Shown here piece by piece: positions 47,691-64,000 of a stretch of DNA of 64,000 bases. The notes beneath the pieces were generated by a model that saw only the letters and a program-made list of their open reading frames with translations, was not told where the DNA came from and made no database searches. A program made the position numbers and the translations under genes. Source of the stretch: Daejeonella sp. (GTDB taxonomy: Bacteria > Bacteroidota > Bacteroidia > Sphingobacteriales > Sphingobacteriaceae); NCBI RefSeq assembly GCF_030684675.1, contig NZ_JAUXXZ010000028.1, positions 62,001 through 126,000 on the forward strand, in the 5' to 3' direction. Numbering within the stretch: position 1 is the first letter of the stretch; every line of letters begins with the position of its first letter.

Positions 47691-47778
47691 CGAGAAGCTG
47701 AGTAATATATGGTCAATTACCCGTCAATTGTTTTCTCAAGAAGGAATGCAAGCAGGATTTCAGAGAATAAAAATTATG

Positions 47779-47786
47779 TACTTTTG
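47779..47786 (+). promoter_or_regulatory. -7 box for lpxH
   Basis: TACTTTTG matches TAnnTTTG and ends 5 bases before the ATG at 47792; a weak TTTC lies 17 bases upstream. The transcript would be leaderless. Confidence 0.4.
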
Positions 47787-47791
47787 AAATC

Positions 47792-48544
47792 ATGTCAGCC
47801 AGCAAAATATATTTCGCCTCCGACTTTCATTTTGGGGTTCCCGATCATTCTTTAAGCCGTGAACGTGAAGATCTTGTCGTTAGCTGGCTCGAAGAGATCC
47901 GGACAGATGCCGCTGAGATCTATCTTATCGGTGATATATTTGATTTCTGGTTTGAGTATGCAACAGTGATTCCAAAAGGCTTTATCCGCTTTCAGGGAAA
48001 GCTTGCTGAACTCGCTGATTCAGGGATAAAGATTACCTTGTTTAAGGGCAATCATGATATGTGGATGTTCGATTATTTTGTAAAAGAACTGGGGGTTCAG
48101 ATCATTTCTGATGAGCTTGTTCTTGAGCGAAACGGGAAGAAGTTTTATTTGCATCATGGCGACGGACTTGGTCCGGGGGATGCTAAATACAAAATCCTCA
48201 AAAAGATTTTCAGAAGTGGGTTTTGCCAATGGCTTTTTGCGCGCATTCACCCAAATCTTGGGGTTGGAATTGCGGGAAAATGGTCAATGCATAGTCGCTT
48301 GCAAAATAATCAGAAAGAGGAGTTTACCGATCTTGATAAAGAATGGCTTGTTTCTTATTCCAAAGATTTATTGCTTAAGGAACATTATGATTTTCTGATA
48401 TTTGGGCACAGGCATTTACCACTTGATGTTCAATTGGGGGATAGCCGTTATATCAACCTGGGTGAATGGATGAACTTTAATTCTTATGCCGTTTTTGATG
48501 GTGAGAATCTGGAGCTTCGCTACTTTAAAAAATATGAAGACTAG
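47792..48544 (+). CDS. lpxH: UDP-2,3-diacylglucosamine diphosphatase
   Basis: The 250-residue metallophosphoesterase has the motifs [39 protein letters not shown] and FGHRHLP of LpxH, which hydrolyses UDP-diacylglucosamine to lipid X in lipid A synthesis at the inner membrane. The length and the extra aromatic pair after the second motif fit LpxH rather than a general phosphatase. It stands alone. Confidence 0.9.
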
Positions 48545-48597
48545 TATCAGTAAAGCAATTCCCTTATTATCCTTCTGCTAAATTTCCAAAAAAGCCG

Positions 48598-48605
48598 TAT
48601 TTTTG
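48598..48605 (+). promoter_or_regulatory. -7 box for prfA
   Basis: TATTTTTG matches TAnnTTTG, 58 bases before the prfA ATG; no clear -33 element. Confidence 0.35.
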
Positions 48606-48663
48606 TAGCCTTATTGAAAAAAGCTTTTTAATTGGGCTTTCAATAGGTTTTTCAAAGAACAGG

Positions 48664-49737
48664 ATGTTACAAAAACTAGAATATATAAAGGAGCGCTGGC
48701 AGGAAGTTGAGCGTGAGCTGAGCAATCCGGCAACGATGGGCGACATGAAGCGCTTTGCCCAGCTTAATAAGGAATATAAAGATCTGACTAAGATCGTTGA
48801 TGAGTATAAGATTTACAGCAATGTGATCAGCAATATCGAGTCGAATAAAGAACTTCTTTCGAACGAGAAGGATGATGAATTGCGTGAAATGGCTAAAATG
48901 GAGCTGGATGAGCTGATTCCTCAACAGGAGCAACTGGAAGAAAAGATTCGTGTGATGCTCATACCTAAAGACCCTGAAGACAGTAAGAATGCAATTGTTG
49001 AGATTCGTGGAGGGACAGGTGGTGATGAGGCTGCTCTTTTCGCTGGCGACCTATACCGTATGTACACCCGTTATTGTGAGCGCAAGGGTTGGCGTATGGA
49101 GGTTGTAGATGTAACAGAGGGAACTGCAGGTGGTTATAAGGAAGTTGTTTTCAATGTTACTGGTGAAGATGCCTATGGACAGCTGAAATATGAATCGGGT
49201 GTTCATCGTGTGCAGCGTGTGCCTGATACCGAAACAGCAGGTCGTGTACATACTTCGGCTGCCTCGGTGGTAGTTTTGCCAGAAGCGGATGAGTTTGATG
49301 TGCAAATCAGCATGAATGATGTACGTAAGGATTTATTCTGTTCTTCCGGTCCGGGTGGGCAATCAGTAAATACGACTTATTCTGCAGTTCGTTTAACGCA
49401 TATTCCTACCGGGATTGTAGCACAATGTCAGGATCAGAAGTCACAGTTAAAGAACTTTGATAAGGCATTTGCTGTTCTCAGGAGCAGGGTATATGAGCTT
49501 GAGCATGCAAAGATGCTGGAAGAGACCTCTAAGAAACGTAAAACAATGGTTTCTACCGGAGACCGTTCGGCTAAGATTCGTACCTATAATTATCCTCAGG
49601 GAAGGGTAACGGAGCATCGGATTGGCTTAACAATTTATAATCTTCCAAATGTGATGAATGGGGATGTTCAGGAAATAATCGATCAGTTACAGCTTGCAGA
49701 GAACGCTGAAAAGATGAAAGAGGGCTCAGTTGCCTGA
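48664..49737 (+). CDS. prfA: Peptide chain release factor 1
   Basis: The 357-residue protein has the GGQ motif at residues 231-233 ([16 protein letters not shown]), which triggers peptide release, and the RF1 segment [18 protein letters not shown]. It ends translation at UAA and UAG codons. The second half continues with the conserved region [14 protein letters not shown]. It stands alone before the tRNA genes. Confidence 0.96.
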
Positions 49738-49912
49738 TGGTTTTCTGATGAAAGCAGGCTTTAAATCAACTGATTTTTATTGTTATTAATTGAATATTAG
49801 CAGTTTAGCCACAGATTGAAAATTAAGCTTTTTATTATTTGCACTATATAGGTTATTGCCGTATATTTGCCTCACTTTTAAGAAAAACGGTTTCCGCAGA
49901 TCTAAAAAGGAT

Positions 49913-49985
49913 GATTCCGTAGCTCAGCTGGTAGAGCATTACACTTTTAATGTAGTGGTCCTGGGTTCGAATCCCAGCGGGATCA
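49913..49985 (+). tRNA. tRNA-Lys (anticodon TTT)
   Basis: The acceptor stem GATTCCG pairs with CGGGATC (one G-T pair), with D-arm AGCTCAGCTGGTAGAGC, anticodon loop CTTTTAA carrying TTT and T-arm CTGGGTTCGAATCCCAG. Discriminator A at 49985; CCA is not encoded. Its 3' end is repeated downstream at 50056. Confidence 0.97.
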
Positions 49986-50094
49986 CATAGTAACGTGCGA
50001 AGCACGAGTAAATCAATTTCTCTGGGATGAGAAGTTTACCCTGGTGAAAATCAGGGAATCCCAGCGGGATCACAAAGTTACGTGCGCAGCACGA
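49969..50094. repeat. Duplicated tRNA-Lys 3' end (attachment-site-like)
   Basis: The 39 bases at 49969-50007, which run from the T-arm of tRNA-Lys through its 3' end and the following hairpin CGTGCGAAGCACG, recur at 50056-50094 with three changes. The 48 bases between contain further short stems (TTCTC/GAGAA, CCCTG/CAGGG). A repeated tRNA 3' end is the usual mark left by tyrosine-integrase elements. Confidence 0.7.
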
Positions 50095-50161
50095 AAAAAA
50101 TTGTATCTTTCCTGTGCTGACAGGAAATAGCTCTGAAAGCAAGGTATAATAAAGATAAAAC

Positions 50162-50235
50162 GGACCGGTAGTTCAGCTGGTTAGAATGCCGCCCTGTCAC
50201 GGCGGAGGTCGCGGGTTCGAGTCCCGTCCGGTCCG
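50162..50235 (+). tRNA. tRNA-Asp (anticodon GTC)
   Basis: Acceptor stem GGACCGG pairs with CCGGTCC, the anticodon loop CTGTCAC carries GTC, and the T-arm is GCGGGTTCGAGTCCCGT. Discriminator G at 50235, CCA not encoded, followed by a T-run. Confidence 0.97.
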
Positions 50236-50256
50236 CTTTTTTAATGTTAAATGACA

Positions 50257-50293
50257 CAAAAACCCTCAAATGATATGATTTGAGGGTTTTTTG
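50257..50293 (+). terminator. Rho-independent terminator after tRNA-Asp
   Basis: ACCCTCAAAT (50262-50271) and ATTTGAGGGT (50278-50287) form a perfect 10-bp stem with a 6-base loop and T-run; an A-run on the other side would allow action in both directions. Confidence 0.88.
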
Positions 50294-50342
50294 TTTTCAG
50301 AGCATACCAAAACATTCATCTTTTCGCATAAAAAAGGTGAGT

Positions 50343-50383
50343 AATTCGGGAGTTCTTTTAGTCTAAAACCGAACTCCCGAATT
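50343..50383. repeat. Perfect 13-bp inverted repeat
   Basis: AATTCGGGAGTTC (50343-50355) and GAACTCCCGAATT (50371-50383) are separated by 15 bases, 100 bp before the integrase remnant. Without a T-run it looks more like a protein-binding or attachment site than a terminator. Confidence 0.6.
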
Positions 50384-50482
50384 AGCATGTAAGTAATTGA
50401 TTTACAACCTGTTCAATGCTTGAACATCTTGATTTCAGGTGATTAAATAATCAAATTTGTTTCATTATTAATCATCATCATT

Positions 50483-50735
50483 ATGAGAACTACGCTCAAT
50501 TTGCTTTTCTCTCCAAGAAAACCAAAGAATTACCAATCAGGCGACATGCCAATTTACTTACGGATCACTGTAGATGGCCAACGCGTCGAAGTTGCGGTAA
50601 GCCGAAAATGTGATCCCAGTCGCTGGGATATCAGAATGGGACGAGCCACGGGCAACAAGGCCGATGCAAAAACCTTAAATGCTTTTCTGGATGGAATGCA
50701 GACTAAGATCCATGAGATCCACCGTCAAATTTTAG
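50483..50735 (+). pseudogene. Tyrosine integrase, N-terminal fragment
   Basis: About 84 residues match the arm-binding domain of Bacteroidota site-specific integrases: RTTLNLLFSPRKPKNYQSG, MPIYLRITVDGQRVEVAVSRKCDPSRWD and ATGNKADAKTLNAFLDGMQ. Homology stops near residue 84 and the frame continues as unrelated sequence to 50866. The core appears again at about 51085, so the gene was split by an inserted or substituted segment of about 350 bp and is non-functional. Confidence 0.8.
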
Positions 50736-51039
50736 CTTTTACATCTGACGGATGGCTTGATTTAAAAGGGTCTTTTACCCGTAGCTGCTCTATACGATCG
50801 GAAACGATTTCCTGCACATGCTTGAAAAAGCTTTGTTCGTGTCCCTGTGGGTTGTTAGAGAGATAGTAATTTAGATGGTGCTGATAAAAAGCTTCAAACC
50901 GGCTTTCATCCAGCTTTATTAAACGATAAAGAAGGTGGTTATCTTCAAGCAGTTTGGACCAGAATAAGGGTCTGCCGATATCTAATGACTGAGGCGAAAA
51001 GTCAAATCGCTGGCGGTGTTTGAAATAGGTTGTCTTCAT
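50725..51039 (-). CDS. Hypothetical protein inside the split integrase
   Basis: From the ATG at 51039 (MKTTYFKHRQRFDFS) a 104-residue frame runs to 50725; an open frame reaches 51102, but its first part is antisense to the integrase core. It is rich in aromatic residues and Leu (YRLIKLDESRFEAFYQHHLNY), with a helical look and no family I can name. The last 15 codons may lie over the integrase junction. It could be a fragment of an element protein; low confidence that it is expressed. Confidence 0.35.
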   Translation of the reverse strand: MKTTYFKHRQRFDFSPQSLDIGRPLFWSKLLEDNHLLYRLIKLDESRFEAFYQHHLNYYLSNNPQGHEQSFFKHVQEIVSDRIEQLRVKDPFKSSHPSDVKAKI

Positions 51040-52652: not shown

Positions 52653-52972
52653 ACAAACATTTTAAAACAAAAATAATGAAACAATTTGAGATTTGGCGTG
52701 ATATGACATTTTATATCACGCCAAATCTTTTGTTTTAGGTGTACTTTTGGCGTGATAGATGTTTTTATAATGCGCCAAATCTTATATTCAAGAACCTTGC
52801 TGTTCAGGCTTGGTCATGGTATTAGGATTTAAAAGTTCAATAACAATCTACAGCAGGTGGTTAAGTTCTTAGCAGGAAATATTTTACCCCGATACTGTTG
52901 GGTATCAATGCTTGACTCAACATTAAACTTTTTGTTTAAATTGTTCCCGCCTATTAACTGAATCCGTACTTA
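52653..52972. other. Divergent intergenic region before the defence operon
   Basis: 320 bp between the ATPase and the 943-residue gene. The ATPase side holds the two palindromes; 52800-52972 shows only AT-rich spacer with no clear TAnnTTTG box, so the operon promoter could not be placed. Confidence 0.6.
52690..52779. repeat. Two palindromic TTTGGCG motifs upstream of the ATPase
   Basis: GATTTGGCGTGATAT (52690-52704) and ATATCACGCCAAATC (52713-52727) form a perfect 15-bp stem with 8-base loop. A second, imperfect unit follows: TTTGGCGTGATA (52746-52757) with CGCCAAA (52773-52779). Four copies of the same half-site within 90 bp suggest an operator or a mobile-element end. Confidence 0.75.
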
Positions 52973-55804
52973 ATGAAATACCTTGAGTGGAATAATTGTA
53001 TTGCCGACTATTTCTTTACACCTGAAAAATCAGGGGATGATATTTGTTTATATATAACCAAAAAGGACGTTATATTAATAGGAAAAGGGAAGACTGAACT
53101 TCGAGTTAATGATGAAGAAATCTGGAGTGACTTTATAGCGGCTATTAAATCAGGTATGCCTGGCTCATCAAATTTACCAACACTTATTGATAAGGCGACC
53201 TATACATATGAGTTTTGGAAAAAGCCCAGACCTAAATTTATTGATGGCATCGCAGTAACTTCCCCTTTCTACATTGGATACTTAATCTTTTTTATAATTC
53301 CCCTCACTGAAGAGATCTTTGAACTTCACGCAAGAAATTACTATGGACGCCTTAGTGCATTTCTGAAAGCCAATTTAATAAATCAAAGGATAAATAGCCT
53401 TCAGGATTTAGAACCGCTGTGGAACGATTTGGAGGAGTGGTCCATTCTTACCATGAATGGAGACCTCGGATTTTTCTCATTAGGTAAGTATAGTGCAAAT
53501 TATAAATATGTCGGGAAACCTTTTTCTCAATGCATTTTCTCGCCAGCTTCAATAAAAAGGCTTCCCGAATTATTTTTTGAATCGGGCATGATACCTAATT
53601 CATCATATTCAGACACGGAAATGCAACAATGCCTTTTGCGATACGGGCCTAGTAAACTTGGCTTGACTCATGCCGTTTTAGAACTTATCAAAAAGAGCGG
53701 CTCAAATGAGTTAGGTCAATCCATTATTCAACTGGTTAAAAGAGAATATTCAAAATGGACTGGAGAATCCCATGAATTCATTGAAAATGGCGCGATTGAA
53801 AAAAGAAAAAGAAGTTATACGATATCACCGCTATTATTACAATTTAAACTGTTTTCCAACAGGGGTCAAATACAATTTTCATTTCGAATGCATTCCTTCA
53901 ATGATTACCCGGAAGATTTAAAATTTGGAGATATTGAAGTTTTGAACATTGGTAAAGGTTTTTCAAAAGTTTTTGATCTGCCGACAAAATCAAGTTTGGA
54001 CCCGTTTGATTTGAAGGATGATTTCAACAAATGGATAGCCCGGTTTCCCAAAAAGGATGTCCGGCTGTTTATAAGCGCGGGCATTTATCAGTTAAGTGCC
54101 GACTACTGGATTGAGACAGAAACACTATCTAAAACTGATCGTATGTATTTGCTTTGCAGGAATGAGGTGAAAGAGAAAATCGAAAATTGGGGAGATCATT
54201 TTAAACAAGGAACATTTTCTCTGATCGATAATTTAGAAGGACTACCGGAGGATTATTCTCTTTTCAGCTTTCTAAATCCATCTATTAGCTTTGAAGGGAT
54301 ACCAGTCCTAACTATTTTATCCGGAAAAACAATCCAATTATTACGCGCCCTTAGAATAACACATAGAAGTTTTACAAATGATTTCTTACCTGACGTGGAA
54401 ATCTCAAATTCAGATGGCAATGAAATTGTTTATATGCAATACCGCAACCATAACGAAAAAATATTCTTAGAAAAAAAGCAAACATCTAATAATCGTTGGG
54501 GATTGCCAGAAGAAATTGTCTCAAATGTTGATTTTCATATAAAAGTCGAGAATGAGCATTTTTCAGGAAACGACATAGCTTACTCGATAATATGCACTGA
54601 TCATTCTGCTAGAAAAGTTGATGGTATTAATCTCCCCAAAAGAGATGCATTTGGTAGAAAATCGAGTAAGGAGTTGCAACAATACTCTATCGGCAGTAAT
54701 ACTATTGGCATCAATTTAAGACGGCAAGAGTCCTACAGACAATTTTTTATAAATATCTTTGAAGATACAAATGAAGATCTCACCGTCCCAAAATATATAA
54801 ATCAGGAAGGTAACATCCTCTTGTCGTTTCTGACTTATAGAAATACGAGCTCAACGGAAGAATTTTACGAGGCCTTTGAATTTTTACACTCGAAAAATTT
54901 AGACGACAGAATACAAGAGTCCAATATAAATTATTCGAAGATTAAAAGGGGCGCACTAAATATGTATGATTATTTGGGCTACCTCGATTATGATTATGAA
55001 TCAAAAGAAATTGTTGTAAATCCACCACAGCTAATCTTTATTCCTGCTGCAAAAGGCAGGCGGGTGTTATTGATTGGGGGACGCGATTCTGCATTTGTCA
55101 ATACTATGTTAGAAATCGCACCCAAACATCACTTACAGGTTGAAATTACGAAACAATCATCCCTAAACCGGCATCTATTACTTCCTGATGCAATTACTGT
55201 CAAGGCTTATGGAGGTCGCTCCGAAAACTTTGGTGAAAGAAACATTAAAGCCTTTGCAGAAGAGTTAGGCATTAATTTCAACCCAAACGATCTAATACAA
55301 GTGGGTATGCAATTGTTTGCAGCCGACATAGATGAATATGAGCGAGATCTTATAGATAACAATGAAACAAACGAAGATGATTATGACTGGGCACGAAAAA
55401 TTTTTAATCCAGCTAGCTTAACTTATGAAAGGAGTTCAGGGGAAACATTTGACAAATCCTTTTCATTGGTTGAATATAAATTAAATGAGTACACTTACTA
55501 TAACAAGCTATGGAAGGATCAAAAATGCTACTTAATTGATAAAAATTGGGGAAAGTATTTAGCGCTTAAACACTTTAACAAACAAGTTATATTATATGAT
55601 GTGAAAAAGCACAAGGTTGCTATTCCGTTTGAATTGCCGTTACCACGATTACTTGCTGAATCTATTATGCTGCTAAGCGGAATCGCGCCTGTCTACCTAA
55701 AAATAGATTCTAAAGCATATCGAATTTACGATAATATTCCCAGTCCATTTATTAAAAATTTGTTTGATAAGCTAAAGCAGACAACAATAGAATTTAATCT
55801 ATAA
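52973..55804 (+). CDS. Unknown 943-residue protein, first gene of the Druantia-like operon
   Basis: I do not recognise a named domain. The start MKYLEWNNCIADYFF is followed by a mixed alpha/beta region; there is no signal peptide and no membrane segment that must be one. Around residues 660-705 a winged-helix-like unit (RGALNMYDYLGYLDYD, then EIVVNPPQLIFIPA and GRRVLLIGGRDSAF) stands out. No ATPase or nuclease motif is visible. The gene ends 5 bases before the helicase gene. By size and place it could match the large accessory proteins of Druantia (DruH in type III, DruF in type II), but this is not shown by the sequence alone. Confidence 0.85.
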   Translation: MKYLEWNNCIADYFFTPEKSGDDICLYITKKDVILIGKGKTELRVNDEEIWSDFIAAIKSGMPGSSNLPTLIDKATYTYEFWKKPRPKFIDGIAVTSPFYIGYLIFFIIPLTEEIFELHARNYYGRLSAFLKANLINQRINSLQDLEPLWNDLEEWSILTMNGDLGFFSLGKYSANYKYVGKPFSQCIFSPASIKRLPELFFESGMIPNSSYSDTEMQQCLLRYGPSKLGLTHAVLELIKKSGSNELGQSIIQLVKREYSKWTGESHEFIENGAIEKRKRSYTISPLLLQFKLFSNRGQIQFSFRMHSFNDYPEDLKFGDIEVLNIGKGFSKVFDLPTKSSLDPFDLKDDFNKWIARFPKKDVRLFISAGIYQLSADYWIETETLSKTDRMYLLCRNEVKEKIENWGDHFKQGTFSLIDNLEGLPEDYSLFSFLNPSISFEGIPVLTILSGKTIQLLRALRITHRSFTNDFLPDVEISNSDGNEIVYMQYRNHNEKIFLEKKQTSNNRWGLPEEIVSNVDFHIKVENEHFSGNDIAYSIICTDHSARKVDGINLPKRDAFGRKSSKELQQYSIGSNTIGINLRRQESYRQFFINIFEDTNEDLTVPKYINQEGNILLSFLTYRNTSSTEEFYEAFEFLHSKNLDDRIQESNINYSKIKRGALNMYDYLGYLDYDYESKEIVVNPPQLIFIPAAKGRRVLLIGGRDSAFVNTMLEIAPKHHLQVEITKQSSLNRHLLLPDAITVKAYGGRSENFGERNIKAFAEELGINFNPNDLIQVGMQLFAADIDEYERDLIDNNETNEDDYDWARKIFNPASLTYERSSGETFDKSFSLVEYKLNEYTYYNKLWKDQKCYLIDKNWGKYLALKHFNKQVILYDVKKHKVAIPFELPLPRLLAESIMLLSGIAPVYLKIDSKAYRIYDNIPSPFIKNLFDKLKQTTIEFNL

Positions 55805-55809
55805 TCAGT

Positions 55810-58800
55810 ATGAAAGATCCAATAGGTTCGTTTGAAATTATAAAAGAAAACTTCATACGGTATGTGGAAACCGCGTTTGGTACCAGGTTCGATGGTGTTG
55901 AACGTGAGCGGTATAATCTTCTTAATTATGATAAAGTCCTTTATCGTAAGCCTTGGATTGAGCCCTTACCCGATTATATTACAAGCGATAAGCGTATTGA
56001 TGATTTAACCCTGGAAGATTTAGGCAATAAATTAAATATTCAAGAAGCAACTATTTTTAAGGCACTGGTAAAGACCGGATTATTCCCTGAAGACATAAAA
56101 ATGCACTCTCATCAAGCAGAGATGTTGAGATTGGCGTTGGAAGGCAATAATTGCATTATCACTTCTGGAACCGGTTCAGGTAAGACAGAATCCTTTTTAC
56201 TACCTCTGTTTGCGCAGCTTGCAAAAGAGCTTGTTGGTTGGCAACGTCCACATCCAAAACCCACAACAGTTAATATTTGGTGGAAAGAACGGGTACAAGG
56301 AGGACTTACAACTGCTCAAATTGTTGATACAGCAAACTTTACGCTGAGTGATGCCGCCAGGCAGCGCCAGCATGAAAAACGAAAATCAGGCGTAAGAGCG
56401 CTGATTCTTTATCCAATGAACGCTTTGGTTGAAGATCAAATGAGCAGGTTGAGAAAGGCTCTGGATTCGGATGATACAAGGCAGTGGCTAAATACGAATG
56501 CGAACGGCAACTCGATATATTTTGGCCGATATAATGGTAGTTCTCCTGTTGCCGGTGAATTGAAGAAGATAGTAGAGGACAGGACGGTAATCAATAAGAA
56601 AAAGGTTGATCGACTAACAGAAGTGCTACGACAAATTGAAAAGGCTTCAGACAAAGTTGAACAATATATACAAGCGGAGAATAAAACCGCAGCTGAGGCG
56701 AAGGAGTTAAAATCCTTTTTTCAACGTCTTGACGGCTCCGAAATGAGAACCCGGTTTGATATGCAAGTTGCACCTCCTGATATTCTCATTACAAACTATT
56801 CTATGCTGAGTATTATGTTAATGCGGGATGTTGACTCTGGAATTTTTGAAGAAACGAGACAATGGCTGGCTTGTGAAGACCTAATTGAAACAGAAAGACA
56901 GGATGCTAAAAGGAACAGGATATTCCACCTAATTATTGACGAATTACATTTATATAGAGGTACGCAGGGGACGGAAGTAGCCTATCTACTAAAACTTGTA
57001 CTTAACCGTATAGGATTGGATCCCCATCATCCCCAGTTGCGCATTCTAGCATCTAGTGCATCGCTTGAAGTTGGCGACGAAGACAGCAAAAATTTTGTTT
57101 GTGACTTTTTTGGAATCAGTAAAGCACATTTTGATACAAAATTTAAATTAATTGAAGGCAAAAACAATCTTGTTGTCCCCTTTCCTGAAGGCGGAAAGAA
57201 ACTTCCGGTTAGACCTTTTAAAGAAGTTGCAGAACAATTTTCACTAGCGAAAGGAAATATTTCAAATGCAAGCTTTATTGCAGCCTGCGAGGCCGCTGCT
57301 ACAAATATTGGCATAGAATTCGGAATTGGACGACAAGGAAATGGACTTGAAAAACTGCTTTCCGTGATTACAGATCCAGCCCTTCAATTGAAAGAAAGAT
57401 TGTACTCACCTTGTGCTGACTATAAAGCGGTTTGTTCAATAAAAGCAGCAGGGGATGATGCATCAGGAAAGTATTTTGCAGAAACAATTTTTGAACATAC
57501 TCAGTTAAGAGAAGATTTGCAAAATGCCCTAAGAGGTCTCCTTATAACAAGAGCAATACTTGACGAACCTCAGTTTCAACTAATTGCTTCGGCAATTCCT
57601 AACGACCGAAAATTGCCAAGGTTCAGATTTCATTATTTTTTTAGAAATATAGAGGGAATCTGGGCATCCATAAAGGCAGATGACGTCAGCAGCACCACCT
57701 ATCTGGATGGTGAACGAACAGCGGGGGAATTATTTTCCACTACAAGAATCACCTCCAGAAGCGGAAACAGGGTCTTAGAGCTACTTTATTGTGATAATTG
57801 CGGAACAACCCTATTTGGGGGAAGTAGATTGATTACTAGAAATGAATCAGGCAATCATTCTTTTGAATTGCTTCCAATCAGTCCCAACATCGAAGGAATA
57901 CCCGAAAAAACACCTGCGAAACTGTTAGAAAAAAGAAGTTTTCAGGAATTTGCTGTCTTTTGGCCGATTGGCAACCAGGAATTTATCAGGCACGATCGAG
58001 AGCATGGTATTCCAGCGAATTATTGGAGGCAGACAACCGTCAATGGCCACAACCAAGGGGACTATGAAGCCAATTGGATTGAAGCGTCAATTAATTGCAT
58101 TTCAGGTGATATTGACTTTACGCACGAAAAAGCAAACTCGGACACTAATTGGATAAAAGGATATTATTTTACAGTTACTCCAAATGGATCGGACAGGGAT
58201 GTCGCTTTTCCTGATGCTAATGGAAATATTAATGATGTAGAAACGCACCGGGCTCTTCCAAATGTTTGCCCATGCTGTGGATTGAATAATCAAAAGCGAA
58301 GACAAGATACACCCAAAAGAAAATTCACACCCATTAGGGGCTTTAGAACAGGTTTTGCTAAAACGACACAGATATTCGCAAAGGAATTAATGTATCAATT
58401 GCCCGATAACGAAGCCCAACGAAAACTGGTTGTCTTTTCAGACAGCCGTGAAGATGCTGCCCAGGTCGCAAACGGCATCGAAAGAAACCATTTTACAGAT
58501 TTGTTACGTGAAATTTTGGTTGACGAACTTCACACCAATTTGATGTTACGCTTCCATATCATAACGGCCTTGGATAGTAGTGATGAAGAGCGACAAATAG
58601 AACTTCGGGAAAAAGCGCCAATAATTTATGACGAGGTGGAAGATCTGTTTGACAAATCAAATTACCTTGGGCAAAATACAGTCAAGCAGCGCGAGAAAGA
58701 GGACGCATCTATTAGGTTAAACGAGTATCGTTCCTTGCTGATAAATGTGAGGGAATTGGTCCACATTACAAATTCAGTAAATCTCGCACCACTTATTAGA

Positions 58801-61800
58801 AAGTTTGTTGATCTAGGAATTAATCCAGGCGGTAATGATCTTTCGTTACAATCCAAACCATTAGCAGGCAGATTTGTCCCGTGGTATGAATTAATTGACT
58901 TTGACAGGGAGGAATGGAAAGCGGGCATTAGTGATGAGTTCATTGCAGAAATGAGGGACGGAACACTGACCAACCTAGCTTCTATGTTCTTTGGATCACT
59001 TTTTTATTCTTTTGAATCGTCAGCATTAGGTTATGTAAGCATCAATCCGGTTTTGCCGGTAATTACTGACCAAGCACGTGCGGTTGTACTTTCACCGGAG
59101 GTGTTTTTACAAATTGTCAATTCAACCATTCGAATTTTAGGAGATAAATACAAACATAATAAAGTCGACGACCCGAACCCTTTTAACCTCACGACATATA
59201 ATGAACTCCCCGGCCAAGTAAAAAAATATATCCGCGCAGTCGCTCTCCGCTTTTCAAAACAAGAACATGAACTGGGAGATGCTGTGTTTACAACACTCAA
59301 TACAGGCGGTTTATTGACCGGAGATACAGGAATTCAAGTTGAAAATCTCTTCATTAAAGTTGCAAGATCAACTGACTATGTTTGGACAAGTCCGCGCGCA
59401 AGCAGGCCACACCTGCATCTTAGCGGAGGCATTTGCACTTATTCAGTTACACCATTACAGACTGACAATGATGGCATTTGCGATGACATATGGGGAAATA
59501 ATTATTTATCGTACAATGCTATAAAAGAGAAGCGACCGCCAATACGTTTACACTGTGAAGAATTAACTGGCCAGACGGACGACCAATTTGAGAGGCAAAG
59601 GCATTTCCGAAATATTATCCTTCCAGACGAGGGTGAAAGACAAGTAAAGGCAATTGATTTGTTAAGCGTAACGACTACTCTTGAAGTGGGCGTTGACATC
59701 GGGGCCTTGCAAGCGGTAATGTTGGGTAACATGCCTCCACAAAGGTTTAATTATCAGCAACGGGTCGGACGTGCGGGTCGCAGGGGTCAGGCTTACTCTG
59801 TAATATTAACTTTTTGCAGGGGTAGAAGTCATGATGAGTTCTATTTTTCAAATCCTCACAAGATAACAGGTGATTCGCCGCCAACTCCGTTCCTTACGAT
59901 GAATCAGGAAAGGATCTTTAAACGTTTGCTTGCAAAGGAAATTTTCAGAAAGGCATACAAGTACGAGAACATTGACATTAGAAACGACGAAAAATCAAGT
60001 GTTCATGGTGAATTTGGAAGTATAGGCGACGTACAGGTAAATTGGCTTGAATACAAAGAACAAATTATCCATTGGATTAACAATAACGTTACCAAAATAG
60101 AAGAAACAGTTGACGCATTAATAACACCTGCTTTGCTGACTAAGAAGAATGATTTTGTTACCTGGATAACAGATACACGAGATATGAACGGCCTGATGGG
60201 AAAGGCCCAGAGTGTTATAAACAACGAGGAAATATCAACTACAGACGTGTCAGAAAAACTGGCAGAAGGCGGGGTATTGCCAATGTTCGGAATGCCCACC
60301 ACAATAAGAAATCTATACCATGGCATTAAAAAAAATCTAGATCCACTTTCTATAGACAGAGCGCAATCAATGGCAATCTATGAGTTTGCTCCCGGCGCCC
60401 AAAAAACAAAGGACAAAGCAATACACCAAGTGATAGGTTTTACAAGCGACATAATAAGTACAAGAATACGTGGAATTGAGACTGTTACCAACGTAAGAAC
60501 GGGCAATCAGCTTCCCTTCTCAATGAACCGCTGGTTTGTACGTTGCAGGGCGTGTGGCTTTTTTGAAACCTATTCAGAGGAAATGAAAATTGAATTGGAT
60601 ACCCAAAGTCAGTTTGACGATTGCCCCAATTGCGGTGAAGTTAATCCCGATAAATACCAAAGACCAGTAAAATTGAAATCTCCGAGAGCATATAGAACTA
60701 ATCTTTCTATCGGTAGCGATTCAAAAGATGATTCAGAGTTTCTTTTGTCAAGACCACCAATTTTTGCAGAAAAGATAAATGATCCGGATAATCCAGATCA
60801 ACATCAAATCATAAACAATGCTAACCTGACTATAAGTGACAAAGATGTTACTTGGAGGGTTAACACGAACTCTGATCGCTATTTCACGGGAAGACTTTAC
60901 AGCACAAATAATAGATTCCCTTTTAACCAAGGTAATGGATATTGGTTTAATGAACAGTGGTTAGTCAATGATTTCGCCGTTAATTCTGAGTCAAACGGTT
61001 ATTCAATGTTCGTTCAGAATGGCACAGTCGGTCAAGATGAAAATATTGCTTTGGCAGCCAATAAAAAGACCGAGATTTTTAGAATAGCACCTGCAAGCGT
61101 TTCCTTGGAATTGGACCTGAATATGTTTTCAAGGGAAACCGATCCACCGCATATTAAGGCACAATCTAACGGTGTGCGTTCAGGATATTATTCAGCAGCA
61201 TTCTTATTTCAAAGGATTTTGGCAGATAAACTCGATGTTGATCCTGCGGAAATTGAAATTGCGGATATTTCTATGAAAACCCTTGACGATGGAACAGATC
61301 GGAAAATCGCTGAAATTATCTTAACAGATGAATTACCTAACGGCTCTGGGTTTGTGCGGTATTTATATAATAATTTTCAGAACATTCTTGCCGAAGCAAT
61401 AAATCCGCCTGATGCAACTGACTATTTGGGTAAGATTCATACACAAACACATCAAGACAGGTGCAGTGATGCTTGCTACGATTGCCTGAAAGTTTACAGG
61501 AACATGAATTATCACAGTTTGTTGGACTGGAGATTAGGCTTAGCTATGATCAGAGTCATGAGCGACGCGAGTTATACATGCGGGGCAGACGGCAATTTCA
61601 GTCACTATATTGAACTGAATACTTGGCTTGAATTTGCGACTGAATTAAGAAACAGCTTCGCCCAGAGCTTTAGTTTTACAGATTTGGCTGAAATTAACCG
61701 ATTACCTGTGATTACGTTCGGAAGAAATCAAGCAAATGTGATAATGATCGTTCATCCTTTCTGGGATTTAAGAAATATCCGCGAGGCAAATTGGTTGGCT

Positions 61801-61920
61801 GAAGTAAAAGCTGAAATTGATGAATATAGTAGTAGCAGAGGCGGTACTATCAGTATCATTGACACTTTCAATTTACATCGCAGGCCTGGATGGTGCTACG
61901 AAAAGTTAGTTAACAGATGA
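55810..61920 (+). CDS. DruE-like DEAD/DEAH helicase with DUF1998-like C-terminus
   Basis: The 2036-residue protein has Walker A GTGSGKTE (residues 120-127), Ia-like ILYPMNALVEDQ, motif II DELH (from residue 377), motif III SSAS (about 414), FSDSRED (about 876), motif V TTTLEVGVDIG (about 1287) and motif VI QQRVGRAGRRGQ (about 1316). Zinc-type Cys pairs lie near 660 (CDNC), 820 (CPCC), 1579 (CRAC) and 1605 (CPNC). The C-terminus has RCSDACYDC (1884-1892), as in DUF1998 proteins. This fits DruE, the helicase of Druantia anti-phage systems. DISARM differs by splitting helicase and DUF1998. The stop overlaps the nuclease start. Confidence 0.9.
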   Translation: MKDPIGSFEIIKENFIRYVETAFGTRFDGVERERYNLLNYDKVLYRKPWIEPLPDYITSDKRIDDLTLEDLGNKLNIQEATIFKALVKTGLFPEDIKMHSHQAEMLRLALEGNNCIITSGTGSGKTESFLLPLFAQLAKELVGWQRPHPKPTTVNIWWKERVQGGLTTAQIVDTANFTLSDAARQRQHEKRKSGVRALILYPMNALVEDQMSRLRKALDSDDTRQWLNTNANGNSIYFGRYNGSSPVAGELKKIVEDRTVINKKKVDRLTEVLRQIEKASDKVEQYIQAENKTAAEAKELKSFFQRLDGSEMRTRFDMQVAPPDILITNYSMLSIMLMRDVDSGIFEETRQWLACEDLIETERQDAKRNRIFHLIIDELHLYRGTQGTEVAYLLKLVLNRIGLDPHHPQLRILASSASLEVGDEDSKNFVCDFFGISKAHFDTKFKLIEGKNNLVVPFPEGGKKLPVRPFKEVAEQFSLAKGNISNASFIAACEAAATNIGIEFGIGRQGNGLEKLLSVITDPALQLKERLYSPCADYKAVCSIKAAGDDASGKYFAETIFEHTQLREDLQNALRGLLITRAILDEPQFQLIASAIPNDRKLPRFRFHYFFRNIEGIWASIKADDVSSTTYLDGERTAGELFSTTRITSRSGNRVLELLYCDNCGTTLFGGSRLITRNESGNHSFELLPISPNIEGIPEKTPAKLLEKRSFQEFAVFWPIGNQEFIRHDREHGIPANYWRQTTVNGHNQGDYEANWIEASINCISGDIDFTHEKANSDTNWIKGYYFTVTPNGSDRDVAFPDANGNINDVETHRALPNVCPCCGLNNQKRRQDTPKRKFTPIRGFRTGFAKTTQIFAKELMYQLPDNEAQRKLVVFSDSREDAAQVANGIERNHFTDLLREILVDELHTNLMLRFHIITALDSSDEERQIELREKAPIIYDEVEDLFDKSNYLGQNTVKQREKEDASIRLNEYRSLLINVRELVHITNSVNLAPLIRKFVDLGINPGGNDLSLQSKPLAGRFVPWYELIDFDREEWKAGISDEFIAEMRDGTLTNLASMFFGSLFYSFESSALGYVSINPVLPVITDQARAVVLSPEVFLQIVNSTIRILGDKYKHNKVDDPNPFNLTTYNELPGQVKKYIRAVALRFSKQEHELGDAVFTTLNTGGLLTGDTGIQVENLFIKVARSTDYVWTSPRASRPHLHLSGGICTYSVTPLQTDNDGICDDIWGNNYLSYNAIKEKRPPIRLHCEELTGQTDDQFERQRHFRNIILPDEGERQVKAIDLLSVTTTLEVGVDIGALQAVMLGNMPPQRFNYQQRVGRAGRRGQAYSVILTFCRGRSHDEFYFSNPHKITGDSPPTPFLTMNQERIFKRLLAKEIFRKAYKYENIDIRNDEKSSVHGEFGSIGDVQVNWLEYKEQIIHWINNNVTKIEETVDALITPALLTKKNDFVTWITDTRDMNGLMGKAQSVINNEEISTTDVSEKLAEGGVLPMFGMPTTIRNLYHGIKKNLDPLSIDRAQSMAIYEFAPGAQKTKDKAIHQVIGFTSDIISTRIRGIETVTNVRTGNQLPFSMNRWFVRCRACGFFETYSEEMKIELDTQSQFDDCPNCGEVNPDKYQRPVKLKSPRAYRTNLSIGSDSKDDSEFLLSRPPIFAEKINDPDNPDQHQIINNANLTISDKDVTWRVNTNSDRYFTGRLYSTNNRFPFNQGNGYWFNEQWLVNDFAVNSESNGYSMFVQNGTVGQDENIALAANKKTEIFRIAPASVSLELDLNMFSRETDPPHIKAQSNGVRSGYYSAAFLFQRILADKLDVDPAEIEIADISMKTLDDGTDRKIAEIILTDELPNGSGFVRYLYNNFQNILAEAINPPDATDYLGKIHTQTHQDRCSDACYDCLKVYRNMNYHSLLDWRLGLAMIRVMSDASYTCGADGNFSHYIELNTWLEFATELRNSFAQSFSFTDLAEINRLPVITFGRNQANVIMIVHPFWDLRNIREANWLAEVKAEIDEYSSSRGGTISIIDTFNLHRRPGWCYEKLVNR

Positions 61921-62993
61921 TGAATAGAATTGGAAAAATAAATTACAGGCAAATCAACAGAATTTCCCCAAGCCAATTTTATTCCATGAAAAATTGTGCC
62001 TACAAATCCATTCTGGCAGAAGCTTTCGAGAAGAAACCTCTGTTGCCTATTTCACCAACCGCATATTTGGGAATAGTCATGCATAAAATGCTTGAGTTGA
62101 TTTCAAAAGGCACAGTGTCTAGTGAAGAAGAATTTGATTTTCAATTTAATGAACAAGTAAAATTCCAGGAAGAAACTTTGAAACAGCTAGGTTACCCCTT
62201 CTTTGTTCCCCTTCAAAAGAACGTAAAGGATTTTGGAATGAAAAAGATTCTATTAAAGAAGCATTTGAAAAATCGTGTCATACGAACAGGGTCAGCTAGA
62301 AGTATCAAGATCGATTCTGAAAAATGGTTCGAATCAGCAGATAAATCAATCGGCGGGAAAATTGATCTGATAATCGAGGAAGGATTTGAGACAGAAATTA
62401 TTGATTTCAAAACCGGAGGAATTACCCACGATGTATTAGACGACGAAGGGGATGTTTTTTCGAATATAAAAAATGAATACAAAGAACAGTTAAAATTATA
62501 CGCTTACTTATATTTTGAAAAAACAGGCAAATATCCTGTCCGTTTGAGTTTGGTTGATTTGGCAAAACAAAAATTTACTGTTGACTTTACCAGCCATGAA
62601 TGCAAGACAATTTTTGACGAGGCCAGGGAGTTATTAAAGGCAACCAATAATAGCATCAACAATTCAATATTCTCTGCTAATCCATCTGTTGAAAATTGCA
62701 AATACTGCCTCTATAGGCCGGCATGCAGCTATTTTTTAGAATATTTAAAGATAAATGACTCATTTAATGACATTTCTGGAAGAATATCAAAAGTGGTTAA
62801 GTATCTCAACGGGAATGTAACGGTATTCATTGATTTGCCGGAAAGGAGTATTTCGGTTATGGGTTTTATTGCAGAAAACCTCCAGTATTTTAATGAAAAT
62901 ATCAATAACACCATTGCTATTTTCAACGTGAAGAAAGAAGCCAGTGAGAATGTTTATTCAGTTACAAGGACTACAACAATTTATGATCAATAG
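61917..62993 (+). CDS. Cas4/AddB-like PD-(D/E)XK nuclease with iron-sulfur cluster
   Basis: The 358-residue protein opens with RISPSQFYSMKNCAYK and has active-site residues His56, Asp150 (GGKIDLI), Asp163 and Lys165 (IIDFKTG) and a Gln191/Tyr195 pair (QLKLYAY). Cys27 and C261-x2-C264-x5-C270 match the four-Cys iron-sulfur site of Cas4 and AddB. The last 85 residues look like an extra beta-rich domain. It should cut DNA, presumably unwound by the helicase. Its ATG overlaps the helicase stop (ATGA), and its end overlaps the methyltransferase start by 11 bases. Confidence 0.88.
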   Translation: MMNRIGKINYRQINRISPSQFYSMKNCAYKSILAEAFEKKPLLPISPTAYLGIVMHKMLELISKGTVSSEEEFDFQFNEQVKFQEETLKQLGYPFFVPLQKNVKDFGMKKILLKKHLKNRVIRTGSARSIKIDSEKWFESADKSIGGKIDLIIEEGFETEIIDFKTGGITHDVLDDEGDVFSNIKNEYKEQLKLYAYLYFEKTGKYPVRLSLVDLAKQKFTVDFTSHECKTIFDEARELLKATNNSINNSIFSANPSVENCKYCLYRPACSYFLEYLKINDSFNDISGRISKVVKYLNGNVTVFIDLPERSISVMGFIAENLQYFNENINNTIAIFNVKKEASENVYSVTRTTTIYDQ

Positions 62994-64000
62994 TAAGATA
63001 CCCATTTTATCATGTTTCTCGGGCGGTGGCTTTCTAGATATGGGATTTGAAATAGCCGGGTTCTCAATTGTTTGGACTAATGAGATTGAGCCATCATTTT
63101 CAACGTTCTATAGTGAGGGCATTACATCGTGGAAAAAAAATAAGGAAGCAATAAATAACGAAATTAAATGCACTATATCCAATAACTATTCAATAAAAGA
63201 CGTAACACAGGAAACAGTAATCGATGAAGCCTTTGGCGGTGAAAAACCAGACGTTTTTGGAATGATTGGGGGACCTCCATGTCAGGATTTCAGTATTAAT
63301 GGAAATCTCAATGGGTTTAAAGGAGATCGAGGATCATTGACTGATACATATTTATATAAAGTACTTGAATTACAACCGTCATTTTTTGTGATGGAAAATG
63401 TAACTGGCTTAATAAAGGTTAAAAAGCATGGCAAGCACTTTTTTGAGCTACTTAAAGCAATGGCAGACGATTATTTAATTGATTGGGATGTTTTAAATAG
63501 CTTGGAATTTGGAGTGCCTCAGTCTCGCGAAAGAATATTTGTTATTGGTCTCAATAAAAAACAATTTCAGTTGGATTCCATTAAGCTGAATATCAAAGGT
63601 CAATGGTTTCCATTTAGAGAAAATGCCATATATCAAAATCCACAGACTTATTACAAATGGCCGCAGCCAAACGCTTTTGGAAATTCGGTATCAAAATCAA
63701 ATGATATTCCCTTGCAACTCTGTTTGGACTCTTGCCTAGTCCCGTACAACGAAGAGCAAAATATTCCGAATGCCGATGAATATTTTAATCTAACAGGTGA
63801 CAAAGAAAGGTTCAAACAAATAAAAGAAGGTGAGACAAACCGCCCTTCATTTAAAAGACTTCACCGTTTTAAGTATAGTCCCACTGCTTGTTATGGTAAC
63901 AATGAAGTGCATTTGCATCCCTACTATAATCGAAGACTATCCGTTAGAGAGGCATTGCGAATACAAGGGGTTGACGATTCATATGTATTATCTACAAAAG
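62983..64000 (+). CDS. C5-cytosine DNA methyltransferase (3' end beyond window)
   Basis: The ATG at 62983 opens 339 codons that run off the right edge. Motif I is FSGGGFLDMGFE, motif IV GGPPCQDFS with catalytic Cys100, motif VI MENVTGL (about residue 138), motif VIII QSRERIF, and the last visible part SVREALRIQG is close to motif X. The target site is unknown. The gene starts inside the 3' end of the nuclease gene, so all four genes form one unit. It could mark host DNA as self, like DruM of Druantia type II or DrmMII of DISARM. Confidence 0.93.
   Translation, partial: MINSKIPILSCFSGGGFLDMGFEIAGFSIVWTNEIEPSFSTFYSEGITSWKKNKEAINNEIKCTISNNYSIKDVTQETVIDEAFGGEKPDVFGMIGGPPCQDFSINGNLNGFKGDRGSLTDTYLYKVLELQPSFFVMENVTGLIKVKKHGKHFFELLKAMADDYLIDWDVLNSLEFGVPQSRERIFVIGLNKKQFQLDSIKLNIKGQWFPFRENAIYQNPQTYYKWPQPNAFGNSVSKSNDIPLQLCLDSCLVPYNEEQNIPNADEYFNLTGDKERFKQIKEGETNRPSFKRLHRFKYSPTACYGNNEVHLHPYYNRRLSVREALRIQGVDDSYVLSTK

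What the first reader, a model, noticed from the sequence alone, without database searches (positions are those of the whole stretch)
52973..64000. Four-gene Druantia-like defence operon with helicase, iron-sulfur nuclease and cytosine methyltransferase
Seen: four genes on one strand with gaps of 5 bp, then overlaps of 4 and 11 bp, next to tRNA genes and a broken integrase. Known: Druantia systems use a very large DruE helicase with DUF1998; type II adds a cytosine methyltransferase. Inferred: the 943-residue protein, the helicase, the nuclease and the methyltransferase act as one self/non-self system. The gene order (unknown-helicase-nuclease-methyltransferase) and the Cas4/AddB-like nuclease may mark a variant.
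Basis: partly seen in the sequence, partly recalled or inferred. Interest (0 to 1): 0.9.

Follow-up and report, generated by a model that had tools for sequence, protein, structure and literature searches.

The report
Druantia operon mixing two known types
A bacterial chromosome carries what looks like a five-gene antiviral defence operon built around the giant Druantia helicase, in a gene combination that falls between two catalogued Druantia types, and in at least one relative its probable recognition gene has been replaced as a unit while the helicase stayed nearly the same.

Summary
In detail: four same-strand genes, a 5-bp gap, then 4- and 11-bp overlaps. The window ends inside gene 4; the contig adds a fifth gene, Vsr. 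It is a Druantia system: gene 2 is a full-length DruE (1847.5 bits). It is neither canonical type II (no DruG found) nor type IV as published (DruM is present). The "unknown" 943-residue protein is a DruF-DruL fusion. Gene 3 is PADLOC "DruK", a RecB/Cas4-like nuclease whose four iron-sulfur-type cysteines are invariant in 20 of 20 rows. Of 21 DruF(L)-DruE loci read in Bacteroidota/Ignavibacteriota, 20 have K next and 19 have M next on the same strand. In 395 phylum genomes FL and K occur in the same 7.

New here: DruL looks like the detached C-terminal part of long DruF, and FL is exchanged: against the nearest DruE relative (82% identical), F is 31% and L 37% identical, and DNA similarity starts at the DruE start codon. 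Best reading: FL recognises, DruE unwinds, K degrades, M and Vsr manage host DNA. A new variant of a known kind; no function was tested.

The parts
52973..55804 (+). FL: DruF-DruL fusion, 943 aa; F = residues 1-600, L = 601-943; proposed recognition/adaptor subunit
   Evidence: PADLOC DruF4 PDLC00054 230 bits over residues 1-583 and DruL4 PDLC00056 168.4 bits over 616-937; AlphaFold model: helical 1-261, beta-rich about 281-545, then L
55810..61920 (+). DruE: 2036-aa YprA/MrfA-type SF2 helicase with MZB/DUF1998 zinc module; C-terminal part without a conserved D/E-x-K
   Evidence: PADLOC DruE2 1847.5, DruE4 1661.6 bits; PF00270, PF00271, PF09369 over cut-off; GTGSGKT and DELH identical in 28 of 28 rows, C-terminal columns; PDB 9wae relative
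61917..62993 (+). K: DruK, 358-aa PD-(D/E)XK nuclease, Cas4/AddB-like with C27, C261, C264, C270; proposed DNA-degrading effector
   Evidence: PADLOC DruK 75.5 bits, Cas4 40.9 bits; PF12705 64.8 bits against 22; Cys and D150, D163-x-K165, Q191, Y195 invariant in 20 of 20 rows
62983..64000 (+). M: DruM, cytosine-C5 methyltransferase, 377 aa; continues past the window to L002:14116, followed outside the window by vsr at L002:14121-14549 (142 aa)
   Evidence: PDLC00030 DruM2 425.3 bits; PF00145 158 bits; TIGR00675 146.7 bits against 100.65; Vsr TIGR00632
50162..50236 (+). tRNA-Asp whose 3' end is the left edge of variable DNA
   Evidence: ARAGORN; in 16 of 17 matched genus relatives similarity ends at 50236-50249 although the query ran on to 50420
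50483..50866 (+). integrase remnant (arm DNA-binding domain only)
   Evidence: PF17293 E 1.4e-11; 127-aa ORF

Best explanation
This is a chromosomal Druantia-family antiphage operon, FL-DruE-DruK-DruM-Vsr, in a variable island behind tRNA-Asp. Shown by sequence: the family of each part, the recurring order, and the replacement of FL in one close relative. Inferred mechanism: FL is the recognition and loading subunit. Its model has a helical part, Ig-like beta-sandwich, and a winged helix plus an alpha/beta part; no catalytic motif stood out to me; it has the lowest median conservation of the parts compared. On recognising invading DNA or a phage protein, FL admits the YprA-type helicase DruE to that DNA. 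DruE's C-terminal part lacks a conserved catalytic D/E-x-K, so DruE unwinds, and the Fe-S RecB/Cas4-like nuclease K, encoded next to it, degrades the strand that DruE releases, as in other helicase plus Fe-S nuclease pairs (recalled: AddAB, Dna2, Adn). M methylates cytosines at a site that looks constant within the closest clade and so lowers self-attack. Vsr repairs the T:G mismatches that deaminated 5-methylcytosine leaves (recalled role).
For: Family assignments. K and FL in the same 7 of 395 phylum genomes (5 of 170 genera), DruE in those 7 plus 2 more distant ones. K after DruE in 20 of 21 loci. Nuclease residues and cysteines of K invariant in 20 of 20. No conserved D/E-x-K in the DruE C-terminus over 28 rows, in line with the published prediction of inactivated Vsr domains in Druantia I/II helicases (PMC12458937). 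In 16 of the 18 fused operons, median pairwise identity is E 69, K 59, M 57, L 50, F 42; F is below E in 120 of 120 pairs, L in 119. Own and L018: DruE 82%, F 31%, L 37%; the blastn match begins at 55810, the DruE start codon; the DruE tree joins the two with SH-aLRT 100 and the FL data reject that clade, p-AU 0.0005. In type III, DruH is the proposed sensor, diverges faster than DruE and has Ig-like domains (PMC13192584).
Against: No experiment. No fold match of FL or L is strong (best Z 8.0, at an rmsd of 27.6, and 6.3), and no sequence homology of FL to DruH was found, so the sensor role rests on divergence, one clear exchange and a loose likeness of architecture. DruH itself is also reported to cut DNA, so a sensor-like protein need not be only a sensor. 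K is also below DruE in 104 of 105 pairs and M in 76 of 120: DruE is simply the most conserved part, and fast change of F could mean weak constraint. Three cyanobacterial and one Deinococcus relatives have F, L and E with no K found, and L030 lacks K, so K is not the only possible effector. In the FL tree L018 has a long branch, which the test cannot fully discount.
Confidence: 0.58

Rival explanations
1. A site-specific restriction-modification system: M marks one short sequence as self and FL-DruE-K find and cut DNA lacking that mark at the same sequence.
For: M follows K (or E) on the same strand in 19 of 21 loci; in seven closely related rows printed, a stretch of M's target-recognition region is nearly identical while the rest diverges; Vsr, the usual partner of cytosine methylation, is within the fetched region in 7 of 21, a lower bound because some regions end soon after M.
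Against: L020 has F, L, E, K and no M in its 14.4-kb contig, and no M was found beside the cyanobacterial and Deinococcus F-L-E genes. M can be exchanged apart from the rest: L031 and L025 share F 80, L 82, E 84, K 78% but M 57%. Own and L018 differ strongly in FL while that stretch of M is kept, which is not expected if both read one site. In more distant rows the recognition region of M falls to 20-56% identity, so a constant site is not shown for the whole group.
Confidence: 0.25
2. An abortive system: infection frees K or DruE to attack host DNA and the cell dies before phage release.
For: In Mycolicibacterium a type III system is reported to act by abortive infection (PMC13316683, outline with section headings and abstract seen).
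Against: The accompanying M and Vsr look like means of sparing and mending host DNA; ARMADA, a relative, is reported as direct and non-abortive (PMC12458937 abstract). Nothing here tests it.
Confidence: 0.1
3. A DNA repair or replication operon of the host that only resembles Druantia.
For: MrfA/YprA-type helicases and RecB-type nucleases also work in repair (recalled); Vsr is a repair enzyme.
Against: Patchy: 7 of 395 phylum, 8 of 395 class and 5 of 201 family genomes, and 0 of the other 19 genus members; position in variable DNA beside PDC-S27 and an integrase remnant; DruE 1847.5 bits against 68.3 for the best NCBIfam helicase model.
Confidence: 0.04

Closest known systems
Druantia type IV (PADLOC 2021, PMC8565338: DruE, DruF, DruL)
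   Same: F and L domains and DruE present; the DruK models of PADLOC-DB are numbered next to DruE4, DruF4 and DruL4; by the DruE tree this system lies with F-L-E loci, apart from the six type II records (with long-branch warnings)
   Different: F and L are one protein; DruM, stated absent from type IV, is present; K and Vsr are not in that paper's description of the type
Druantia type II (DruM, DruF, DruG, DruE), e.g. Agrobacterium pusense L041
   Same: DruF-type protein, DruE, DruM and Vsr; PADLOC scores DruE2 above DruE4 for our helicase, against the tree
   Different: No DruG found; order FL-E-K-M-V, not M-F-G-E-V; extra nuclease K; DruE outside the type II clade
Druantia type III (DruH-DruE)
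   Same: A fast-diverging protein encoded before a DruE; Ig-like domains in both
   Different: No sequence homology FL-DruH found; type III DruE is predicted to have an active C-terminal PLD nuclease (PMC12458937), ours shows no conserved D/E-x-K
ARMADA / DISARM (YprA-family relatives)
   Same: YprA-type helicase, DNA methyltransferase, nuclease
   Different: No BrxHII-like protein or PglX-like methyltransferase among the five genes read
Cas4/AddB-type Fe-S nucleases
   Same: K has the PD-(D/E)XK core and the one-plus-three cysteine pattern (pattern recalled)
   Different: K is far below the Cas4 equivalog cut-off (29.9 against 65 bits)

Membership tests
Druantia (family as a whole) | Very large DruE helicase with MZB/DUF1998 module | tested here: met
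   PDLC00015 1847.5 bits over residues 1-2034; PF09369 25.9 bits against 24.2
Druantia (family as a whole) | DruE in an operon with other Dru proteins | tested here: met
   DruF, DruL, DruK and DruM model hits in the adjacent genes
Druantia (family as a whole) | Protects against phage | not testable with these tools
   needs an infection experiment
Druantia type II | DruG present | tested here: not met
   no DruG2 in the full hit lists of FL, DruE, K and Vsr, nor in the 25 of 61 hits shown for M; the same model hits three type II records at 62.4 to 414.9 bits. Limit: the contig ends 218 bp after vsr
Druantia type II | DruM present | tested here: met
   PDLC00030 425.3 bits
Druantia type IV (PMC8565338) | DruE, DruF and DruL present | tested here: met
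   DruF4 and DruL4 hits on one fused protein
Druantia type IV (PMC8565338) | DruM absent | tested here: not met
   DruM hit
Druantia type III | DruH present | tested here: inconclusive
   no DruH hit on FL in PADLOC and no profile match of F or L to 7 DruH sequences; no direct structure comparison could be made
[quoted passage not shown]
   the five genes read are assigned otherwise, but the contig ends just after them
Cas4 (TIGR00372) | score over curated cut-off | tested here: not met
   29.9 bits against 65
DNA cytosine-C5 methyltransferase | score over curated cut-off and catalytic motifs | tested here: met
   TIGR00675 146.7 against 100.65; PPCQ, MENV, QSRERI, GNGVP found in order (motif names recalled)
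Vsr mismatch endonuclease | score over curated cut-off | tested here: met
   TIGR00632 143.8 against 97.85

The most novel reading that the evidence does not exclude
DruF-DruL is a plug-in recognition cassette. It is exchanged as one unit onto a conserved DruE-K-M-Vsr effector chassis, and its parts also occur outside DruE operons (an F protein with an unknown partner in L060, a fused FL-like protein without DruE nearby in L062, and an F fragment in front of DISARM-type DrmE-DrmA-DrmB genes in L033). Types II and IV would then be one modular system whose target range is set by which FL is fitted, as specificity subunits do in type I restriction.
Probability: 0.3. Interest if true: 0.7.

Novelty: new variant of a known kind. 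Interest (0 to 1): 0.45.

Why it matters
I found no mechanism for Druantia types II or IV in the papers that I opened (PMC8565338, PMC12458937, PMC11090510, PMC13192584, PMC13316683, each in part). This operon links the two types: the protein that defines type IV (DruL) is most likely the C-terminal part of the long DruF, a specific Fe-S nuclease goes with DruE helicases that show no conserved nuclease motif of their own, and FL has been replaced exactly at a gene boundary. That makes a direct test possible: swap FL between two operons that share DruE and see whether phage range follows FL. It also suggests that detection rules that ask for separate DruF and DruL genes, or for DruG, could misname such loci (not tested).

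Tried and rejected
Housekeeping helicase: rejected on scores. FL as a DruH homologue: no support by profile comparison against one DruH or seven; kept only as a likeness of architecture taken from PMC13192584. A fold for FL or L: Foldseek gave no match at E 1e-3 or better for either model; the VIA second look gave Ig-like folds at residues 451-543 of FL (Z about 6) and, for L, a winged helix (10-86, Z 5.5) and alpha/beta folds at 82-168 (Z 5.3-6.3) that I read as ferredoxin-like, all in the range the tool calls middling. Single-sequence comparison of FL with type II DruF failed; with profiles F matched at E 5e-10 and FL collinearly at E 1.3e-5 in local mode, while global mode gave no alignment. 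L alone against the C-terminal part of type II DruF: score 26.3 against a maximum of 20.6 in 30 column shuffles, but hhalign probability only 2.6%, so that link rests mainly on PADLOC's long DruF2 models. Idea that M switches target between close operons: not supported, a stretch of the recognition region is kept in the seven rows printed; distant rows differ. Viral contigs: one scan with FL, no relative. Phages: two distant DruE-like records. Bacteroidota-type promoter pattern (recalled): 0 matches in L002. PDB chains related to FL or type II DruF by sequence: none. A first hhalign run with a mistaken global option was repeated in local mode. My first seemed to show the tRNA-Asp edge, but its query ended at that base; the edge is taken alone. 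Rows left out: L027 and L063 are one record and counted once; L061 and L032 are cut by contig ends, L033, L060, L062 have no DruE near and L037 is in pieces, so they are not in the 21; L061 was left out of the DruE tree; L026 and L066 are not among the 16 operons of the pairwise table; L022's L region has stops and was left out of the L set.
Full report
THE OBSERVATION. The window is G000:C73:62001-126000 of an 84-contig genome and the contig ends 767 bp further on. Those 767 bp complete the methyltransferase (377 aa from ATG 62983, stop at L002:14116) and hold a fifth gene, Vsr (L002:14121-14549). To the left lie tRNA-Lys, tRNA-Asp, a 127-aa integrase remnant and a divergent AAA+ gene that PADLOC lists as candidate defence protein PDC-S27 (678.2 bits).

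THE SITE. The stretch 47700-50420 was compared with 20 genomes of the genus, own included: 18 of 20 have a match. Of the 17 matched relatives, 16 have a match that ends between 50236, the last base of tRNA-Asp, and 50249, although the query ran on to 50420; the other, G868, matches a tRNA only. What follows was listed as ORFs in 8 relatives and varies, L089 and L091 being alike. So DNA right of tRNA-Asp, with PDC-S27 and this operon, is a variable island. Family Sphingobacteriaceae is inferred: a same-family genome, G773, shares its contig with Sphingobacterium litopenaei. FL was found in 0 of the other 19 genus members.

THE PARTS. Gene 1: PADLOC DruF4 over residues 1-583 (230 bits) and DruL4 over 616-937 (168.4 bits), so a DruF-DruL fusion; no Pfam or NCBIfam family at E up to 1. 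Gene 2: DruE; DruE2 models 1847.5 and 1834.7 bits, DruE4 1661.6; nearest solved structure 9wae, a 1970-residue helicase (708.4 bits). GTGSGKT and DELH are identical in 28 of 28 DruE rows; the last 190 residues hold no conserved D/E-x-K, which agrees with the published prediction of inactivated Vsr domains in Druantia I and II (PMC12458937, parts 1 and 2 of the results and the figure legends read). Gene 3: DruK models (75.5 bits) and PF12705 (64.8 bits); C27, C261, C264, C270 and D150, D163, K165, Q191, Y195 are invariant in 20 of 20 rows. That these are the Cas4/AddB iron-sulfur and RecB-nuclease patterns is recalled, not taken from a call. Gene 4: DruM2 425.3 bits, TIGR00675 146.7 bits. Gene 5: Vsr.

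RELATIVES. One scan of named genomes with FL gave 12 loci; genome draws gave FL or F in 7 of 395 phylum, 8 of 395 class and 5 of 201 family genomes, own included and partly overlapping. I read 27 distinct Bacteroidota or Ignavibacteriota loci with F material, own included. Of these, 21 have F or FL followed by DruE. Among the 21: fused FL 18, separate F and L 3 (L019, L020, L022, the last with stops in L); K after E in 20 (not L030); M next on the same strand in 19 (not L020; in L066 M and Vsr lie 2-4 kb away on the other strand); F(L), E, K, M all in this order on one strand in 18, own included; Vsr somewhere in the region in 7 (L002, L018, L019, L023, L031, L034, L066), a lower bound. DruE is interrupted in L020 and L026. 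The six left out are L032 and L061 (contig ends), L033, L060, L062 (no DruE near) and L037 (genes in pieces). In the 395-genome phylum draw K (E 1e-15) and FL occur in the identical 7 genomes, from 5 of 170 genera, and DruE (E 1e-40) in those 7 plus 2 distant matches. Three cyanobacterial plasmids and one Deinococcus plasmid have F, L and E with no K or M found; one of them, L036, has an annotated PD-(D/E)XK protein 4 kb downstream behind a transposase, not matched by the K profile. Six proteobacterial records have type II.

DRUL IS PART OF DRUF. Stand-alone DruL of Calothrix matches positions 745-979 of the 1011-residue DruF2 model PDLC00023 (E 1.5e-5), and that of Deinococcus its positions 945-1007 (E 5.2e-4). 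The profile of fused FL aligns in one collinear stretch, positions 5-911, with type II DruF 20-825 (E 1.3e-5, 80% probability, local mode). L alone gives a weaker signal, 26.3 against a maximum of 20.6 in 30 shuffles. So the protein by which type IV was defined (PMC8565338, passages and one section read) is probably the C-terminal part of long DruF, and the two types share a core F-L-E with different additions: G, M, Vsr in type II; K, M, Vsr here. In the DruE tree the six type II records form a clade (SH-aLRT 100) outside which this operon lies; the tree is a quick one and warns of long branches, and PADLOC's DruE2 score above DruE4 points the other way.

FL IS EXCHANGED. L018, from a genome outside the class, has the DruE nearest to ours: 82% identical, joined with support 100. 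K is 65%, M 57%, but F 31% and L 37%. Over 120 pairs of 16 operons (16 of the 18 fused) F is less conserved than DruE in 120 and L in 119; K is below DruE in 104 of 105 and M in 76 of 120; medians are E 69, K 59, M 57, L 50, F 42. Own-L018 is the strongest outlier (z -3.8), and L018 makes the other low outliers too, so this is one clear event. blastn finds a 7.6-kb match at 74% that begins at 55810, the DruE start codon, and a second piece at 63826-64485; FL has none at E 1e-10. The FL alignment rejects an own-L018 clade (p-AU 0.0005). M is also exchanged at times (L031 against L025: F 80, L 82, E 84, K 78, M 57%), yet a stretch of its recognition region stays the same in the seven rows printed; over all 20 rows that region ranges from 20 to 94% identity.

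STRUCTURE. FL was predicted from 14 fused relatives (mean pLDDT 77.6, pTM 0.67) and L alone from 20 (89.8, 0.86). FL reads as helices 1-261, a beta-rich part about 281-545 with Ig-like matches at 451-543, a linker, then L: winged-helix-like 10-86 and an alpha/beta part 82-168 in L numbering. No match is strong. No catalytic motif stands out among the invariant residues, which is my reading, not a test.

MECHANISM. Type III work gives the frame: DruH as proposed sensor, itself with nuclease activity when dimeric, and DruE as helicase-nuclease on replication intermediates (PMC13192584, passages and one section read; PMC13316683, outline and abstract). Carried over by analogy: FL recognises, DruE unwinds, and because DruE shows no conserved nuclease motif, K degrades. 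M and Vsr keep host DNA safe. FL's role is inferred from speed of change and exchange; K's from motifs and co-occurrence; M's from family. None is proven.

NOVELTY. PADLOC-DB already holds DruF4, DruL4, DruK and DruM models, so the parts are catalogued. A search for five terms (DruK, DruL, three spellings of type IV) returned 450 papers, of which 20 were listed; only PMC8565338 among those 20 concerns Druantia, and its main text has no DruK. No paper in the library holds Druantia, Bacteroidetes and Cas4 together. I found no description of the fused FL-E-K-M-Vsr operon or of FL exchange in the listings of searches and the parts that I read; most listed papers were not opened, and subscription papers are not in that library. 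Verdict: a new variant of a known kind.

Noticed in passing
window:51216-52652 (-): Divergent neighbour is PADLOC candidate defence protein PDC-S27 (678.2 bits), an AAA+ ATPase with weak nuclease-like similarity at its C-terminus; the island holds at least two defence-type loci.
   Followed up: partly
window:52683-52788: Between PDC-S27 and FL lie a perfect 16-nt inverted repeat (arms 52689-52704 and 52713-52728) and a longer imperfect one (43-nt arms, 74%); a 15-nt core of it is found nowhere else in the window at up to 2 mismatches. Operator-like or hairpin.
   Followed up: partly
L033:10001-18761: Allomuricauda abyssi: an ORF matching only the first 157 residues of DruF stands before DrmE-, DrmA- and DrmB-type DISARM genes; could be a recombination scar or a real chimera.
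   Followed up: partly
L060:1763-6759: An F protein 48% identical to ours, next to a 465-aa protein of no known family and behind AbiEi/AbiEii genes, with no DruE in the 19.9 kb read.
   Followed up: partly
L062:11223-14198: A 991-aa protein matching both F (hhalign 98.9%) and L (97.1%) profiles, with no DruE in the 19.9 kb read.
   Followed up: partly
window:50236: The 3' end of tRNA-Asp is the edge of variable DNA in 16 of 17 matched genus relatives: an insertion hotspot.
   Followed up: partly
L017:4468-5571 and L031:21062-21769: Unassigned genes directly after M (367 aa and 235 aa) in two relatives, no NCBIfam hit; possible further accessory proteins.
   Followed up: partly
L067:4415-8856: E. 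coli K-12 yjiT-yjiV is a remnant of a type III Druantia (DruH-DruE); longer copies occur elsewhere in the species (L069).
   Followed up: partly
PDB 9wae and six further entries: A 1970-residue helicase close to DruE has solved structures; no chain related to FL or type II DruF was found by sequence.
   Followed up: partly
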